A program made the position numbers and the translations under genes. DNA of 64,000 bases, taken from assembly GCA_002508705.1 (NCBI GenBank), contig DAYL01000034.1, forward strand, positions 1-64,000, given 5' to 3'. Positions 26,677-33,104 of this stretch are shown piece after piece; within the stretch, counting starts at the first letter, position 1; the number at the start of each line of letters is the position of its first letter. The DNA is from Methanoculleus sp. UBA374. GTDB lineage: Archaea > Halobacteriota > Methanomicrobia > Methanomicrobiales > Methanoculleaceae. A model generated the notes under the pieces. It was not told the origin of the DNA, did no database searches, and saw only the letters and a program-made list of their open reading frames with translations.

Positions 26677-27885
26677 TTACCCGTAGAATATGTAATTGGT
26701 GATCGATCCCACGAAGTAGATCGTCTCCTGCCCGTTGTTCAGATTCATCAGCCCATCCGTTCCCGGCATCAGGTTGTAGAGGGTAATTTCACGGTCATCA
26801 TCACCATCGATGATGGTTTCATCATCCACCGTGAACCGTGTCCACATATTGTTCGACGGCACGTTCAGTGTCAGTGTTGAAACGAGGTCTTCGTGGCTCT
26901 GGATGTAGATGCCGTTGATTTTTGCGGTTCCTTTCCTGCCGTCGTTGATATAGAGCGTTACATCGTCGTAGGCAAACGTTGTGATCGTCGATCCGCTCAT
27001 GTAGATCTCGCCCCTTCCGCTCGTTCCGATGACCAGTTTCACCGTATCGCCGATCGCGAGGTCGTAGCGCGTACCCCCGATCTCGATGTAGGAGTAGGCT
27101 CCGGTCACCTTGAATTCGAGATAGCCGCCCGGCATGAGAGAGCCCGTTTTTCCCACTGCCGTGTTGAGCAGGGCATCGTGCCCGGTTGAAGATGCTGTAA
27201 CGGTGATGTATCCTGTCTTTGTTTCGGTATCGGATGCTCCCGCCCTCGTTACGGTCAGGCTGACGGTGTAGTTGCCCGGGGCCGCGTAGGTATGGGTTGG
27301 GTTCTGCACAGTCGACGTGTTTCCGTCTCCGAAGTCCCAGAGCCAGGCGGTCGGCCTGCCCGTGGAGGTGTCGGTGAACCGGACGGCAAGCGGGGCGGGG
27401 CCGTAGGTGGCGTTGGCGGTGAAGTTTGCAGAGACGGTCCCGGCCCCCGGCTCCGTCGGGTCCGGGGAGAACGTCTTCCCCCCTCCCCTGAAGGCCACCT
27501 CGGCAAGGATCGTCTCGCCGCTCCCTGCGACTGCGGTCACGATCACGCGGGTAGGGTTTGCGTCGCCTGTGTAGGTGAGGACTCCCCCGATCGACCAGAC
27601 GCCGTCTTCAAGTCCGATGAAGTCATCGGTCCCGTCAGCAAGGCCGCTCTCGTTGTCAACGTAGATCCGGTACTCCCCCGCCCTGAGGGGGTCGCCTCCC
27701 TCGTGAACGAGGGCGAGGCGGCCGCTCTCGTTCCCCGCGACGATGGCTGCACGGGGGACCTCGTCCGGCTGGTAGCCGGAGAGGAGGACTACCGCCACGA
27801 TCACCACGGCGAGGACGGTCACGCCGACCAGGAGCATGGCCCCGACCACCTCGGAGATTCCATCTTCACCGCGATGTTGTCTCAT
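26677..27885 (-). CDS. Pilin-like surface protein with one PKD domain
   Basis: 402 aa. N-terminal GISEVVGAMLLVGVTVLAVV is the hallmark of archaeal type IV pilin-like DUF1628 proteins, with the processing-type GISE before the hydrophobic helix. A globular beta domain follows (to about residue 145), then one PKD domain (about 155-240, WLWDFGDGN) nearly identical to the first PKD of the neighbouring 851-aa protein, and a C-terminal beta domain of unknown type. Start at the ATG 27885 with GGAG eight bases upstream; the stop of the preceding gene lies in between, so the pair is co-translated. Confidence 0.85.
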   Translation of the reverse strand: MRQHRGEDGISEVVGAMLLVGVTVLAVVIVAVVLLSGYQPDEVPRAAIVAGNESGRLALVHEGGDPLRAGEYRIYVDNESGLADGTDDFIGLEDGVWSIGGVLTYTGDANPTRVIVTAVAGSGETILAEVAFRGGGKTFSPDPTEPGAGTVSANFTANATYGPAPLAVRFTDTSTGRPTAWLWDFGDGNTSTVQNPTHTYAAPGNYTVSLTVTRAGASDTETKTGYITVTASSTGHDALLNTAVGKTGSLMPGGYLEFKVTGAYSYIEIGGTRYDLAIGDTVKLVIGTSGRGEIYMSGSTITTFAYDDVTLYINDGRKGTAKINGIYIQSHEDLVSTLTLNVPSNNMWTRFTVDDETIIDGDDDREITLYNLMPGTDGLMNLNNGQETIYFVGSITNYIFYG

Positions 27886-27890
27886 ACCGC

Positions 27891-28805
27891 TCACTCCACC
27901 AGGGACGCCGCGTTATGGATCGTCACCGTGTAGTTCGCCGGATACACCTTGAGGGTCACCGTCTCGCTCTCGTCTGCTGGCGGCCGGACGATGAGCCGGG
28001 TCGTGTTCCCGTCCCGTTCAATCGACCACGACGAGGTATCAACCCCCTCTTCTATCGCCCTTTGCCGGACCTCCCCAAAACCTCTCTCCCAGGCTCTGGC
28101 CGTCGTCAGATCGCCAGCCTCGATGGTCAGGTTCACCCGATCGTAGGCCCCGTTGAGGGAGGAAGAACCGCTCGAGCGCATCCTTGTCTCGACCCGCACC
28201 GGCCCCGAGCCCGCTATCGTGGCCGCCCCGTCGAGACTGATCGGGGCGATGGTGAGGGTGGTGTTGCCGTCGGTGGTTTTGTAGGCCGCGATCGACGGCC
28301 CGACCCGCACCGTCGTCCCCTCTTCCTGGGAGAGGAAGACCGCGCCCATCTGGTAAGTCCAGGTCTGCTCCACCCAGTAGTTGTTCGAGGACCGGTAGGT
28401 AAGGCTGCCGAGGGGGATGGTCGTGCTCTCAGTCCCGGCTTCAATCGTCAGGTTGGCCCCCCCGCTCATCACCGAGACCGTCCCCCCCGAGCCCGCAGGA
28501 GTAAAGATGGGGAGCGTGAAGACTCTGCCGCCGGTCGCGCCCGCGCCCGTCCCGAGGTCGAAGGCCGTCGAGAGGAGCACCCCATGTCTTTCGTTCACCC
28601 AGAGCGAATCCAGACCGATCTTATAGTCTACGAACCGGTCCTTCACCTGGTTCATGTGCGCGATCTCGTTCTCCCTTCCCGCCGCAGGGACTGCGTAGAC
28701 CTGGTAGAGCGAGAGTGCGACAACGATCACGCCGAGGAGAAGGACGAAACCGACAACCTCCGAGAGGCCGTCATCGCGCGGCTTGGGTGACATTATCAGG
28801 ATCAT
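27891..28805 (-). CDS. Pilin-like membrane/secreted protein, DUF1628-type N terminus
   Basis: 304 aa. Begins with a short basic stretch and GLSEVVGFVLLLGVIVVALS, the same pilin-like start as the next gene, followed by a threonine/serine-rich beta-strand ectodomain without PKD motifs. Start: ATG 28805 lies about 25 bases from a TATA-like element and would be leaderless; ATG 28793 is an alternative. Probably the first gene of the surface-protein operon. Specific function unknown; could be a minor pilin or pseudopilin. Confidence 0.78.
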   Translation of the reverse strand: MILIMSPKPRDDGLSEVVGFVLLLGVIVVALSLYQVYAVPAAGRENEIAHMNQVKDRFVDYKIGLDSLWVNERHGVLLSTAFDLGTGAGATGGRVFTLPIFTPAGSGGTVSVMSGGANLTIEAGTESTTIPLGSLTYRSSNNYWVEQTWTYQMGAVFLSQEEGTTVRVGPSIAAYKTTDGNTTLTIAPISLDGAATIAGSGPVRVETRMRSSGSSSLNGAYDRVNLTIEAGDLTTARAWERGFGEVRQRAIEEGVDTSSWSIERDGNTTRLIVRPPADESETVTLKVYPANYTVTIHNAASLVE

Positions 28806-28976: not shown

Positions 28977-29987
28977 ATGCCACAGGATTCGGGAGTATCC
29001 TCCGACGGGCCGCATCTGAGCCCGGGTTGTGTCCTCTGCCACCAGGGAGCAAAGATGGTTCTCTTCGTGACCGGACGGTGTCGCCGCACCTGCTGGTACT
29101 GCCCGCTCTCGCGCGAGAGAAAAGGCCGGGATGTTGTTTTTGCAAACGACCGGCAGGTCTCGTCGCCGTCGGAGGCCATCGAGGAAGCGGAGTGCATGAG
29201 CGCTCTCGGGACCGGTGTCACCGGCGGCGAACCGCTGCTTGAACTTGACCGCGTGGTGGAGTATTGCCGGGCCCTCAAAGAGCATTTTGGCCAGGATCAC
29301 CAGATCCATCTCTACACCGGCCTTGCACCGGACGAAACCATGTTCCGGCGCCTGCAGGGTCTGGTCGACGAGATCCGGCTCCACCCGCCCCACGAGTCCT
29401 GGCCCCGCATCAGCGAGACCGACTACGCCCGTTCTGCCGTCATCGCCCGTCGAATGGGTTTTTCCATCGGCATCGAGGTGCCGGCGCTCCCGGGCATCGG
29501 CGCCCTTGCCGCCGTGCTGCCGCTCCTTGACTTCCTCAACATCAACGAACTGGAGTGGGGCGAGACCTGCGCCGCCGCCATGCGCGCGCGCGGGCTCGAA
29601 CCCGAGGACGGACTGCATAACGCGGTGCTGGGCGCCCGCCGCTGGGTGGAAGAACTCCCCGACGACCCGAAAGTCCATTTCTGCTCATCCGTCTTCAAAG
29701 ACTCGGTCCAGCTGCGGGAACGGTTAAAGCGGATCGCTGCCAATACTGCGCGTCCGTTTGAAGAGGTGACCGATGACGGGACTGTCGTGTACGGGGTGCT
29801 CGAACCGGCGGTCCCCGTCACCGAGTTTCTGGCGAGCCTCGATGAGGATGATTATATGGTCTGCGATGGAAGGGTCGAGATGGCATGGTGGGTGCTTGCC
29901 GGCGAGGGTGCCGGGCTGCCCGGCCGGAAGTACGTCGTCGAGCGCTACCCCAACGGTGGTATGGTGGTGGAGGTGACGCCTCTGTGA
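28977..29987 (+). CDS. Radical SAM protein
   Basis: 336 aa. CRRTCWYCP at about residues 35-43 is the radical SAM [4Fe-4S] motif, preceded by a conserved CVLCHQGAKMVLFVTG stretch carrying an additional CxxC. This matches the archaeal radical SAM group COG2108, often linked with pyruvate-formate-lyase-activating-type proteins but of unknown substrate. The C-terminal part is a small beta domain. Its stop codon overlaps the GTG start of the cis-prenyltransferase downstream (GTGA, 29984-29987), implying shared expression. Confidence 0.82.
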   Translation: MPQDSGVSSDGPHLSPGCVLCHQGAKMVLFVTGRCRRTCWYCPLSRERKGRDVVFANDRQVSSPSEAIEEAECMSALGTGVTGGEPLLELDRVVEYCRALKEHFGQDHQIHLYTGLAPDETMFRRLQGLVDEIRLHPPHESWPRISETDYARSAVIARRMGFSIGIEVPALPGIGALAAVLPLLDFLNINELEWGETCAAAMRARGLEPEDGLHNAVLGARRWVEELPDDPKVHFCSSVFKDSVQLRERLKRIAANTARPFEEVTDDGTVVYGVLEPAVPVTEFLASLDEDDYMVCDGRVEMAWWVLAGEGAGLPGRKYVVERYPNGGMVVEVTPL

Positions 29988-30766
29988 TACTCAGGTCCCG
30001 GATTGAGGCCCTCTATGAGCGCTGTTTGCGATGGGAGGTGAAGCACATTCCCCGGCATGTTGCGGTGATCCAGGACGGAAATCGCCGATTTGCCAAAGAA
30101 CAGGGGTTCGATACCGCAATAGGACACCGGCTCGGGGCGGACACCACGGAGCATGTCCTCGATTGGGCGTGCGATCTCGGGGTGCAGCACATCACGCTCT
30201 ATACCTTCTCCACCGAGAACTTCCGGAGGGATAAGAGCGAGTTAAAATCGCTCTTTACGCTCTTCCAGGAGAAATTTGTCGCGATACTGACCGACGAGCG
30301 GGTGCATCAAAACCATATCCGGGTACAGATGATCGGCGACCGGTCCCTCCTCCCCGACGCCCTTCTTGCCACCATTGAGGCGGCGGAGAAGGCGACGCTG
30401 CACTACACCGACTACTACATCAACATCGCGCTTGCATACGGCGGCCGAAACGAGATCGTGCATGCAACCCGGTCAATACTGAATGAAATAAAGCAGGGCG
30501 TCATCGATCCTCGGGCTATCAGCACCGCGACCATCGAGAGCCACCTCAACCGGGGAGCGCCGATACCCCCCGTCGACCTGATCATCCGCACCGGCAACGA
30601 CTACCGGACATCCAACTTCCTCCCCTGGCTCGCGAACGGCCACGAGTCCGCCGTCTACTTCTGCGCCCCCTACTGGCCGGCGTTCCGGAAGATCGATCTC
30701 CTGCGGGCGATGCGCGTCTATGACCAGCGCATGCGCCTGAAGGAGCGTGCAGAGAGTCGGTCCTGA
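29984..30766 (+). CDS. uppS: cis-Prenyltransferase (undecaprenyl-type synthase), catalytic subunit
   Basis: 260-aa member of the UppS/DHDDS family that extends an allylic diphosphate with IPP in cis to give the polyprenyl carrier for glycan assembly. The catalytic aspartate lies in VIQDGNRRFAKEQG (Asp31), with TLYTFSTENFRR and the IPP-binding LIIRTGNDYRTSNF following. The GTG at 29984 is chosen: GGAGGTGA lies seven bases upstream and it overlaps the radical SAM stop. The C terminus ends RMRLKERAESRS and lacks the RxG motif found at the end of single-subunit enzymes, while the convergent neighbour has it. Confidence 0.93.
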   Translation: MILRSRIEALYERCLRWEVKHIPRHVAVIQDGNRRFAKEQGFDTAIGHRLGADTTEHVLDWACDLGVQHITLYTFSTENFRRDKSELKSLFTLFQEKFVAILTDERVHQNHIRVQMIGDRSLLPDALLATIEAAEKATLHYTDYYINIALAYGGRNEIVHATRSILNEIKQGVIDPRAISTATIESHLNRGAPIPPVDLIIRTGNDYRTSNFLPWLANGHESAVYFCAPYWPAFRKIDLLRAMRVYDQRMRLKERAESRS

Positions 30767-30809
30767 CGATAAAGGCAGAGGGTTTTCCGGACCTCGCGCC
30801 GGATACATC

Positions 30810-31400
30810 TCATCGCCCGAACCGGCGCGCGCGCGACTGGTAATCCCTGAGTGCCCGGAGAAAATCCACTTTCCGCAGAAGCGCCCAGTTGACGTCGAGA
30901 AAGAAGAGTTCGGAGTAGACCGACTGCCATATGAGGAAGTCGGTCAGGTGGTTGCCGCCCGTTTTGATGACGAGGTCCGGTTCGTAGTTGAAGGTGAGGT
31001 ATGACTCCAGCAGGTCTTCGTCGACCGAAGATGGGTCTACACCGTCTCTGGCCATCCTTCTCACGCAGTCGGCGATCTCTTCCCGCCCGCTCTTCCCGAT
31101 CGCCACCGTTACGTCCATACCTTCCCCGCTCGCCTCCATTCCGTCCAGGTAGTGCAGGGTCAGGTGCGCAATCGACGAGATCGCGCGGATCTGCGGAAGG
31201 CATTGCTCCAGCCGGGCCGGGTCGGTGGTACTGATGTGGAACATGACGCTCCTGATCCCGAGGTCACGGCACCACTGGGTGGCGCGGTAGAGGTTGCCCG
31301 GGGCGTCGAGCATATCCTGCTCGGTGATCATGAAACAGATCTGCTCCGGAAGCGTATGGAGGTCCCGAAGGAGGATCTTCTCGTAGAGACGGTAGATCAC
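30810..31400 (-). CDS. Divergent cis-prenyltransferase-like subunit (probable non-catalytic partner)
   Basis: 196 aa, homologous over its length to UppS: VIYRLYEKILLRDL aligns with the start of uppS, MFHISTTDPAR with the STEN loop, and PDLVIKTGGNHLTDFLIWQ plus SELFFLDVNW with the C-terminal core. The catalytic DGNRR motif is replaced by MITEQDML, so it should be inactive alone, but it ends in RRFGR, an RxG motif. This pattern resembles the Nus1/NgBR subunit of eukaryotic cis-prenyltransferases. GTG at 31400 overlaps the polX stop (GTGA) and has GGAG eight bases upstream; the frame to 31460 would overlap polX heavily. Confidence 0.82.
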   Translation of the reverse strand: MIYRLYEKILLRDLHTLPEQICFMITEQDMLDAPGNLYRATQWCRDLGIRSVMFHISTTDPARLEQCLPQIRAISSIAHLTLHYLDGMEASGEGMDVTVAIGKSGREEIADCVRRMARDGVDPSSVDEDLLESYLTFNYEPDLVIKTGGNHLTDFLIWQSVYSELFFLDVNWALLRKVDFLRALRDYQSRARRFGR

Positions 31401-33082
31401 GACCTCCACTCCAGCAACCCGGATAGAGAGAGGGTGTTTATAATATCGCTCGCGGTGCACCAGCCCCGGCGCGCCAGCATAACGCCGTAGCGCATATTCG
31501 AGAATTCGCCAATCCTGTGAGCATCTGTTCCTGCAGCCAGTTTCACTCCCTTCTTCTTCGCGTGCCAGATATAAATATCCTCAAGGTCAAGCCGGTGGGG
31601 CGACGCGTTGATCTCAAGGGCGGTCCCCGTCTCCGCCGCATGAGCGACCACGCGCACAAGATCGATTGCGTACGGCGGTCGCCGGCCGAGGAGGCGCCCG
31701 GTAGGATGGCCAATGATATCGACGTGGTCGTTCTCCATCGCGGTGAGGACCCGCCGGGTCAGGGTATCCTGGTCCTGGCTGAATCCAGTATGAACCGAGG
31801 CGATCACCAGGTCCAGGTCTGCAAGGACCTTATTCGAATACCCTAACTTCCCGTCGCTCTTGATCTCCACCTCGCTCCCGGCAAGGAGCTGGCAGACATG
31901 CCGCCGGTTGACCCGCTCGATCTCGACCCGCTGCTTTGCGAGAGCATCCGGGCTCATGCGTGACGAGTGGTCGGTGACTGCGATATACTCATAGCCCCGG
32001 GCATCTCCTGCCTCTGCCACGTCTTCCAGCGACTGGCGGCCGTCGCTTGAGGTGGTGTGGGCGTGGAGGTCCCCCCGTATCTCGTGGAGGTCGACAAGGT
32101 CGGGGAGGGCGTGCTGGAGGGCAAGTTCGACCTCGCCCCGGTTCTCGCGCAGTTCCGGCGGGATAGTCGCCATGCCAAGGAACGCAAAGACCTCCTCCTC
32201 GCTCTCGAACGTCTGCAGTTTCCCGGTCGCCGAGTCCGCGAGGCCGTTTCGGTCAAGCCGGTAACCCTGTTTCTGTGCTACCGCACCGAGCCGGTCTAAA
32301 AACCCGCGGGAGCCGGTGGCGCAGAGGAGTGCGGTGCCGCACCGTTCGGGGTCGGTGAATCGGATGTTCAGTTCGGCGTCGTTGACAAAGAGCACGGTTT
32401 CTTCAGCGCTCTCGCCGGCGACCCCGTCGGCGGCGGTTCCAGGACGGTGCAAGAATGTGCTCCGGTCTCCGATAGCGACAATCTCAATCCGGCCGACGGT
32501 ACTTGACCCTCGCCGGTAGCTCCCCGCGACCGCATACCCTCCGCGAGGGAGCAATGCTCGCGCGCTCGCAAGCACGGCCTCGGCCTGCTGTCTGGTCATC
32601 CGGTCCGATTTCCGGCGAAGCTGCCTGATGCCTCTTTTGATCATCTCTTCCTTCTTTACGCCGAAACCCGGGAGCGCCCTGATCCGGTGCCCTTCCACTG
32701 CCTGCGCGAGATCCTCCACGGTCCGGACACCGAGTCTCTTCCAGAGGACGCGCAGGGTCCGGGGTCCCACCCCGGCAACGTCGAGCAGCTCGACGAGCGA
32801 CCCGGGAACGGCTGTCTGCAGGTCGTTGAGTTCCCGGAACGATCCGGTGGCGGCGATCTCCCGGATCTGTCCGGCTATCTTGACTCCTATGCCCGGGACC
32901 CGGGTCAGTTCCTCTTCGTCGAGTCCGGCAACCGGGAGGGGGAGTCGCTCGACCTGCCGTGCCGCCCGCTCGTAAGCCCCGATCCGGTATCGGTCGCTTC
33001 CCGCGACCTCGAGTAGACGGCTCATGAACGCGAGCCGTTCGGCGACATCCCTGTTGGTGACCTGCTTACCCGGGCTTTCCAT
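31397..33082 (-). CDS. PolX-family protein with degenerate polymerase site and intact PHP domain
   Basis: 561 aa, organised as bacterial/archaeal PolX: N-terminal 8-kDa-like and helix-hairpin-helix region (VPGIGVKIAG, VAGVGPRT, LPGFGVKKEE), palm/thumb domain (about 160-310), and C-terminal PHP nuclease (about 335-560). In the palm, the GDVD catalytic aspartates of family X are replaced by GRIE (Arg198, Glu200) and the third aspartate by Asn239. The PHP metal ligands look complete: DLHAHT, TDHSSRM, ASVHTGF, IGHPTGR and GTDAHR. So it should keep 3'-5' exonuclease or phosphoesterase activity but not DNA synthesis. ATG 33082 sits about 27 bases from a TATA box, suggesting a leaderless message. 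Confidence 0.88.
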   Translation of the reverse strand: MESPGKQVTNRDVAERLAFMSRLLEVAGSDRYRIGAYERAARQVERLPLPVAGLDEEELTRVPGIGVKIAGQIREIAATGSFRELNDLQTAVPGSLVELLDVAGVGPRTLRVLWKRLGVRTVEDLAQAVEGHRIRALPGFGVKKEEMIKRGIRQLRRKSDRMTRQQAEAVLASARALLPRGGYAVAGSYRRGSSTVGRIEIVAIGDRSTFLHRPGTAADGVAGESAEETVLFVNDAELNIRFTDPERCGTALLCATGSRGFLDRLGAVAQKQGYRLDRNGLADSATGKLQTFESEEEVFAFLGMATIPPELRENRGEVELALQHALPDLVDLHEIRGDLHAHTTSSDGRQSLEDVAEAGDARGYEYIAVTDHSSRMSPDALAKQRVEIERVNRRHVCQLLAGSEVEIKSDGKLGYSNKVLADLDLVIASVHTGFSQDQDTLTRRVLTAMENDHVDIIGHPTGRLLGRRPPYAIDLVRVVAHAAETGTALEINASPHRLDLEDIYIWHAKKKGVKLAAGTDAHRIGEFSNMRYGVMLARRGWCTASDIINTLSLSGLLEWRS

Positions 33083-33104
33083 GATCAATCGATCATTTGC
33101 AAAA

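What the first reader, a model, noticed from the sequence alone, without database searches (positions are those of the whole stretch)
29984..31400. Split cis-prenyltransferase: catalytic subunit without RxG beside an inactive-looking subunit that has it
Seen: uppS keeps the catalytic DGNRR (Asp31) and RTGNDYR motifs but ends RMRLKERAESRS, with no RxG. The convergent 196-aa neighbour is homologous through the C-terminal core (VIKTGGNHLTDFLIWQ), lacks DGNRR, and ends RRFGR. Known: eukaryotic cis-prenyltransferases pair DHDDS with Nus1/NgBR, where the non-catalytic subunit supplies RxG; a heteromeric enzyme has been reported from Methanosarcina mazei (from memory). Inference: these two form one heteromer here, encoded convergently.
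Basis: partly seen in the sequence, partly recalled or inferred. Interest (0 to 1): 0.85.

Follow-up and report, generated by a model that had tools for sequence, protein, structure and literature searches.

The report
Two-part cis-prenyltransferase of a methanogen
Two neighbouring genes of a methane-making archaeon look like the active and the helper half of one enzyme that builds the lipid carrier for sugar chains, the same division of labour as in the human enzyme and as already reported for a related methanogen.

Summary
LARGE (29984-30766, +, 260 aa) is a full cis-prenyltransferase that keeps the catalytic and substrate-binding residues but has L-K-E where the RxG motif should be. SMALL (30810-31400, -, 196 aa) has the cis-prenyltransferase fold, has lost the catalytic Asp motif, and ends RRFGR, with RxG in the normal register. 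The heteromer inference is very probably right.

It is not specific to this window. In a sample of 146 genomes of the window relatives' phylum, 144 carry cis-prenyltransferase genes, and every one of those has a LARGE and a SMALL. All 144 SMALL read end in RxG (KxG in two) plus exactly one residue, as human NgBR does. None of the 139 LARGE long enough to test has RxG in register. A probable Methanosarcina genome carries exactly LARGE, SMALL and an MM_0014 orthologue, so by elimination the published M. mazei heteromer (MM_0618 + MM_1083) is this pair. It is therefore a new member of a known kind.

What I did not find in print (open library only) is that the split is phylum-wide, that the NgBR-like C-terminal register is strict, and that the genes sit convergently in three lineages. 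Complex formation and activity were not tested.

The parts
29984..30766 (+). LARGE: catalytic cis-prenyltransferase subunit, 260 aa (relatives are named tritrans,polycis-undecaprenyl-diphosphate synthase by one source)
30810..31400 (-). SMALL: non-catalytic, RxG-donating subunit, 196 aa
30810..30824 (-). C-terminal R193-F194-G195-R196 and stop codon: RxG with exactly one residue after Gly
   Evidence: translation; G195 lies 23 residues after W172, the same spacing as W220-G243 in E. coli UppS (alignment); W at that spacing in 139 of 142 SMALL
28977..29987 (+). Radical-SAM protein directly upstream of LARGE, 4-base stop/start overlap; role in this system unknown
   Evidence: PF04055, PF13353; same strand, within 60 bases of LARGE in 69 of 70 loci that hold LARGE; in the 70th, L021, the contig ends inside LARGE
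31397..33088 (-). PolX-type DNA polymerase/PHP gene directly upstream of SMALL, 4-base overlap; genomic neighbour, no functional link claimed
   Evidence: Pfam and NCBIfam matches, the best NCBIfam one (PolX) just under its cut-off, 412.6 against 426 bits; within 100 bases upstream of SMALL in 49 of 80 loci

Best explanation
LARGE and SMALL are the two subunits of one heteromeric cis-prenyltransferase that makes the polyprenyl diphosphate precursor of the cell's glycosyl carrier lipid. LARGE binds the allylic primer and IPP and does the chemistry (Asp31 plus the arginine set). SMALL keeps the cis-PT fold and dimer surface but is inactive; its C-terminal R-x-G-x-COOH reaches across the dimer interface into LARGE's active site, where the Gly backbone helps hold IPP and the terminal carboxylate meets LARGE Arg34 and Arg82, as NgBR's tail does with DHDDS Arg37 and Arg85. 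Shown here: motif partition, register, conservation, co-occurrence, predicted fold, orthology to the known heteromer by elimination. Inferred: complex formation, trans insertion of the tail, product, carrier role.
For: Motifs split between the two proteins in the window and, across the phylum sample, in 142 of 142 SMALL read (R[RK]xGx at the end, 0 with DGN[RG]) and 142 of 142 LARGE read (DGNR); the remaining two genomes of each set conform too (SMALL of G015 and G024; LARGE of G140 and G147). G001, G002, G003 and G005 hold exactly two PF01255 genes, the pair, so no complete one-chain cis-PT is found there. LARGE residues matching DHDDS D34, R37, R38, R85, R205, R211, S213 (alignment; roles from PMC7573591 passages) are invariant in 142 of 142. 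SMALL ends exactly one residue after Gly, as NgBR (G292, K293) does, where deleting K293 or adding one Ala lowers activity. G139, a probable Methanosarcina by its MM_0014/MA1831 orthologue (8.4e-125 over all 204 residues given), has three PF01255 genes: that one, a LARGE and a SMALL; in M. mazei the two paralogues other than MM_0014 form a heteromer making C45-50 products (PMC8131916 passage).
Against: No interaction or activity data. One of 80 Methanomicrobiales SMALL (L055) ends RTLGK, with Thr for the Arg of RxG. MM_0014 shows that a cis-PT can work as a homodimer without RxG, and yeast Nus1 itself lacks a canonical RxG, so the motif is not an absolute requirement. Sequence similarity of SMALL to human NUS1 is weak (24-25 bits by phmmer; 33-38 bits by profile) and lower than to bacterial UppS. 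The M. mazei MM_0618 and MM_1083 sequences themselves were not seen; the link is by elimination in another genome. I saw no text of the original heteromer paper.
Confidence: 0.92

Rival explanations
1. LARGE is self-sufficient as an RxG-less homodimer, like MM_0014/MA1831, and SMALL is a separate or vestigial protein.
For: MM_0014 and relatives lack RxG; MM_0014 crystallises as a homodimer and makes shorter products. By position the two genes belong to opposite transcription units.
Against: LARGE is not of the MM_0014 type: its profile scores 188 bits on the best UppS and 186 on DHDDS but 71 on MM_0014, and five sampled genomes carry a separate MM_0014-like further gene ending TLGG (G006, G025, G111, G114, G139). 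SMALL is kept in 144 of 144 genomes with a strictly fixed C-terminus, which a vestigial protein would not show.
Confidence: 0.05
2. SMALL homodimerises or partners another protein and has a regulatory or scaffold role not tied to LARGE's active site.
For: Yeast Nus1 expressed alone can form homodimers (PMC7573591 passage). Only SMALL's predicted fold, not its partner, is shown here.
Against: The invariant residues include the RxG tail, which in NgBR completes the neighbouring subunit's active site; the tail's register equals that of E. coli UppS, and LARGE is the cis-PT that lacks it.
Confidence: 0.03

Closest known systems
Methanosarcina mazei heteromeric cis-prenyltransferase (MM_0618 + MM_1083)
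   Same: By elimination in a probable Methanosarcina genome, the same orthologous pair: LARGE-type plus SMALL-type, beside the separate MM_0014 orthologue.
   Different: Here the two genes are convergent neighbours with 43 bases between the stops; in G139 they lie about 0.6 Mb apart. Which MM number is which subunit was not seen.
Human DHDDS/NgBR (NUS1), yeast Rer2/Nus1
   Same: Active subunit without RxG plus inactive cis-PT-fold subunit ending R-x-G-x in human; same set of active-site residues in the active subunit.
   Different: SMALL begins at the cis-PT domain, without an N-terminal extension; NgBR has a transmembrane one (recalled for human; mentions it for the yeast homologue). A DHDDS-type C-terminal helix-turn-helix was not looked for. 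No evidence of shared descent of the split.
Homodimeric bacterial UppS (E. coli, B. subtilis)
   Same: Fold and catalytic residues of LARGE; RxG register of SMALL.
   Different: UppS carries both on one chain; here they are on two.
MM_0014 / MA1831
   Same: Archaeal cis-PT, catalytic chain without RxG.
   Different: Homodimeric, shorter products, only distantly similar to LARGE (71 bits), and a separate gene beside LARGE and SMALL in the five sampled genomes where it was read.

Membership tests
Heteromeric cis-prenyltransferase (two-subunit) | One subunit with the catalytic Asp and the FPP/IPP-binding arginines | tested here: met
   LARGE D31, R34, R35, R82, R202, R208, S210; each invariant in 142 of 142
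Heteromeric cis-prenyltransferase (two-subunit) | Catalytic subunit lacks RxG in the C-terminal register | tested here: met
   Window LARGE has L-K-E there; 0 of 139 LARGE with R/K and G in register, 4 of 143 end too early to test
Heteromeric cis-prenyltransferase (two-subunit) | Second subunit of cis-PT fold without the catalytic Asp motif | tested here: met
   0 of 142 with DGN[RG]; predicted fold of the window's SMALL matched by Foldseek and VIA-align
Heteromeric cis-prenyltransferase (two-subunit) | Second subunit ends in RxG that can enter the partner's active site | tested here: met
   R[RK]xGx end in 142 of 142, plus RRFGR and RRFGA in G024 and G015, and in 79 of 80 named loci, the exception being L055. 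Entry into the partner's site is inferred
Heteromeric cis-prenyltransferase (two-subunit) | The two proteins form a complex and are active only or mainly together | not testable with these tools
   needs co-purification and assay
M. mazei MM_0618/MM_1083 pair | Orthology to both published subunits | tested here: inconclusive
   By elimination in one probable Methanosarcina genome and a passage of PMC8131916; the two published sequences were not compared directly
Homodimeric UppS | Catalytic Asp and RxG on the same chain | tested here: not met
   LARGE lacks RxG, SMALL lacks the Asp motif
MM_0014-type homodimer | Close relative of MM_0014 (TLGG-type end) | tested here: not met
   LARGE is far closer to UppS and DHDDS than to MM_0014; further genes of five genomes fit instead

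The most novel reading that the evidence does not exclude
The split cis-prenyltransferase was already fixed in the common ancestor of this whole archaeal phylum, as an obligate two-gene enzyme with an NgBR-like exact C-terminal carboxylate, and the eukaryotic DHDDS/NgBR split descends from the same archaeal event rather than being an independent invention.
Probability: 0.2. Interest if true: 0.75.

Novelty: new member of a known kind. Interest (0 to 1): 0.48.

Why it matters
A review (PMC7839719, passages) gives homodimeric cis-prenyltransferases to bacteria and plants and says heteromeric ones are typically found in fungi, animals and plants. Here the two-subunit enzyme is the rule for a whole sampled archaeal phylum: 144 of 144 genomes with the family. 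SMALL starts directly at the cis-PT domain, so the pair may be an easy model for the human DHDDS/NgBR enzyme, and it makes the question of one or two origins of the split directly testable by phylogeny with Asgard and eukaryotic sequences.

Tried and rejected

Known gaps and caveats: G012 and G021 show no PF01255 gene, unexplained. G022's third gene (103 bits) was not read; G025 has two LARGE. G004, the genome of L029, shows SMALL only. Completeness of the sampled genomes is not told by the tool. 56 of 142 genomes have the two genes on different contigs. SMALL and LARGE were told apart by profiles that include the C-terminus. The pattern pick of LARGE was wrong for L014 and swapped L021 and L022; searches are used instead.

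Full report
What is there. LARGE (29984-30766, +) and SMALL (30810-31400, -) are convergent genes with 43 bases between their stops. Each is the second gene of a pair with a 4-base GTGA overlap: LARGE after a radical-SAM gene, SMALL after polX. Both belong to PF01255, LARGE over the whole profile, SMALL by its C-terminal half. The window's own genome is not held; its nearest named relatives are Methanoculleus, up to 89% identical in SMALL.

Motifs. LARGE keeps DGNRR (Asp31) and RTGNDYR. Counted from the conserved Trp, SMALL's Gly195 is at W+23, the spacing of W220 and G243 in E. coli UppS (alignment printed), whereas LARGE has L-K-E at the three RxG positions. Through the alignment to DHDDS, LARGE D31, R34, R35, R82, R202, R208 and S210 match DHDDS D34, R37, R38, R85, R205, R211 and S213. 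For the human enzyme, passages of PMC7573591 tie R37 and R38 to FPP binding, R205, R211 and S213 to the phosphate in the IPP site, NgBR G292 to IPP binding, and the carboxylate of the last NgBR residue, K293, to R37 and R85; removing K293 or adding one Ala lowers activity. SMALL also has exactly one residue after Gly. Against a strict reading, the same paper notes that yeast Nus1 lacks the canonical RxG.

Close relatives. Of the 120 best clusters for SMALL, 119 carry R.G in the last 8 residues (the other KFG) and none DGN[RG]; of the 120 best for LARGE, all have DGNRR, and 14 have some R.G in the last 8 residues of a variable tail (the lists show 120 of 4735 and 120 of 7745 hits). Among 80 Methanomicrobiales loci (best 80 of 372), 79 of 80 SMALL end R[RK]xGx; L055 ends RTLGK. 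70 of the 80 hold LARGE (in L021 a cut piece), and in 70 of 70 it is downstream of SMALL on the opposite strand, i.e. convergent; the radical-SAM gene is directly upstream of LARGE in 69 of 70, L021 ending inside LARGE. Of the 10 without LARGE, eight have only 86 to 1,615 bases left beyond SMALL, L053 has LARGE 10.2 kb away, convergent, and L029's genome shows only SMALL. In many Methanoregula-type loci several hundred to 1,600 bases separate the two, yet they remain convergent.

Phylum sample. 146 genomes were searched (phylum of G001, a Methanoculleus; Halobacteriota by recall): 144 have PF01255 genes, and 142 of these have a listed SMALL-type place distinct from LARGE. Reading the genes: 142 of 142 SMALL end R[RK]xGx (RFG 93, RYG 46, KFG 2, RRG 1) and none has DGN[RG]; 142 of 142 LARGE have DGNR. 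The LARGE of G140 and G147, read later, also have DGNRR. The two genomes missed by the SMALL profile, G015 and G024, have short divergent second genes that end RRFGA and RRFGR; G024 is Candidatus Methanohalarchaeum thermophilum by the name of the identical protein. In-register RxG in LARGE: 0 of 139, with 4 of 143 ending too early; R.G within the last six letters occurs in 7 of 142, none in register. Five genomes have a further, MM_0014-like gene ending TLGG. G012 and G021 have no PF01255 match.

Gene order. Of 142 genomes with both places listed, 55 have the two genes within 15 kb on one contig; 53 of these are convergent, one divergent, one tandem; 31 are farther apart on one contig and 56 on different contigs. 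On a FastTree of 143 LARGE the convergent state needs four changes among the 87 genomes scored (G015 was scored as apart although its genes are on different contigs; G147 was left out), and it sits in three blocks. So it is an old arrangement kept in some lineages and lost in others, or gained a few times; related genomes are not independent, and no probability is attached.

Link to the known heteromer. PMC8131916 (passages) says that in M. mazei the cPT paralogues other than MM_0014, MM_0618 and MM_1083, form a heteromer making C45-50 products and are likely responsible for the glycosyl carrier lipid. G139 is a probable Methanosarcina by its MM_0014/MA1831 orthologue; its other two PF01255 genes are one LARGE and one SMALL. 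Hence the window's pair is, by elimination, orthologous to the published heteromer. The original paper was not seen.

Structure. AlphaFold2 gives SMALL a confident cis-PT fold (pLDDT 86, pTM 0.83) with residues 9-196 matched to cis-PTs. By profile, human NUS1 is the only solved cis-PT protein in the list whose best match covers almost all of SMALL (9-196, best 1.4e-8); the other cis-PTs match from residue 69 or later. LARGE also folds as a cis-PT (pLDDT 84), with confidence under 50 at 77-79, 209-212 and 214-221, beside the IPP site.

Novelty. Searches of the open library (one search listed 20 of 68) and passages of four papers showed the M. mazei statement and eukaryotic work; in what I saw nothing says the split is phylum-wide or describes convergent neighbours. 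Subscription papers are not covered, the original M. mazei paper among them. The kind is known, the member is new, and the breadth is the useful part. Whether the eukaryotic split shares this origin is open: SMALL scores lower on NUS1 than on UppS by sequence, which neither supports nor excludes it.

Noticed in passing
28977-29987: Radical-SAM protein (PF04055, PF13353), directly upstream of LARGE in 69 of 70 loci; only sub-cut-off matches to named radical-SAM families (HxsC, HxsB, TatD-linked, tetraether lipid synthase Tes). A steady neighbour of unknown function.
   Followed up: partly
L055:3419-4024: SMALL of this MAG ends RTLGK: Thr in place of the Arg of RxG; either a sequence error or a tolerated change.
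   Followed up: no
26677-28805: Two overlapping minus-strand ORFs whose N-termini look like archaeal type IV pilins (ISEVVGAMLLVG, LSEVVGFVLLLG), one with a PKD-like stretch; by eye only.
   Followed up: no
Genomes G012 and G021 (no locus): The only 2 of 146 sampled genomes of the phylum without any PF01255 match.
   Followed up: partly
L342:1363-1866, and the minus strand of L343 (1312-1803 counted on that strand): Very divergent, shorter SMALL-type frames (168 and 164 aa) that still end RRFGR and RRFGA; the first is from Candidatus Methanohalarchaeum and found no relative beyond itself.
   Followed up: partly
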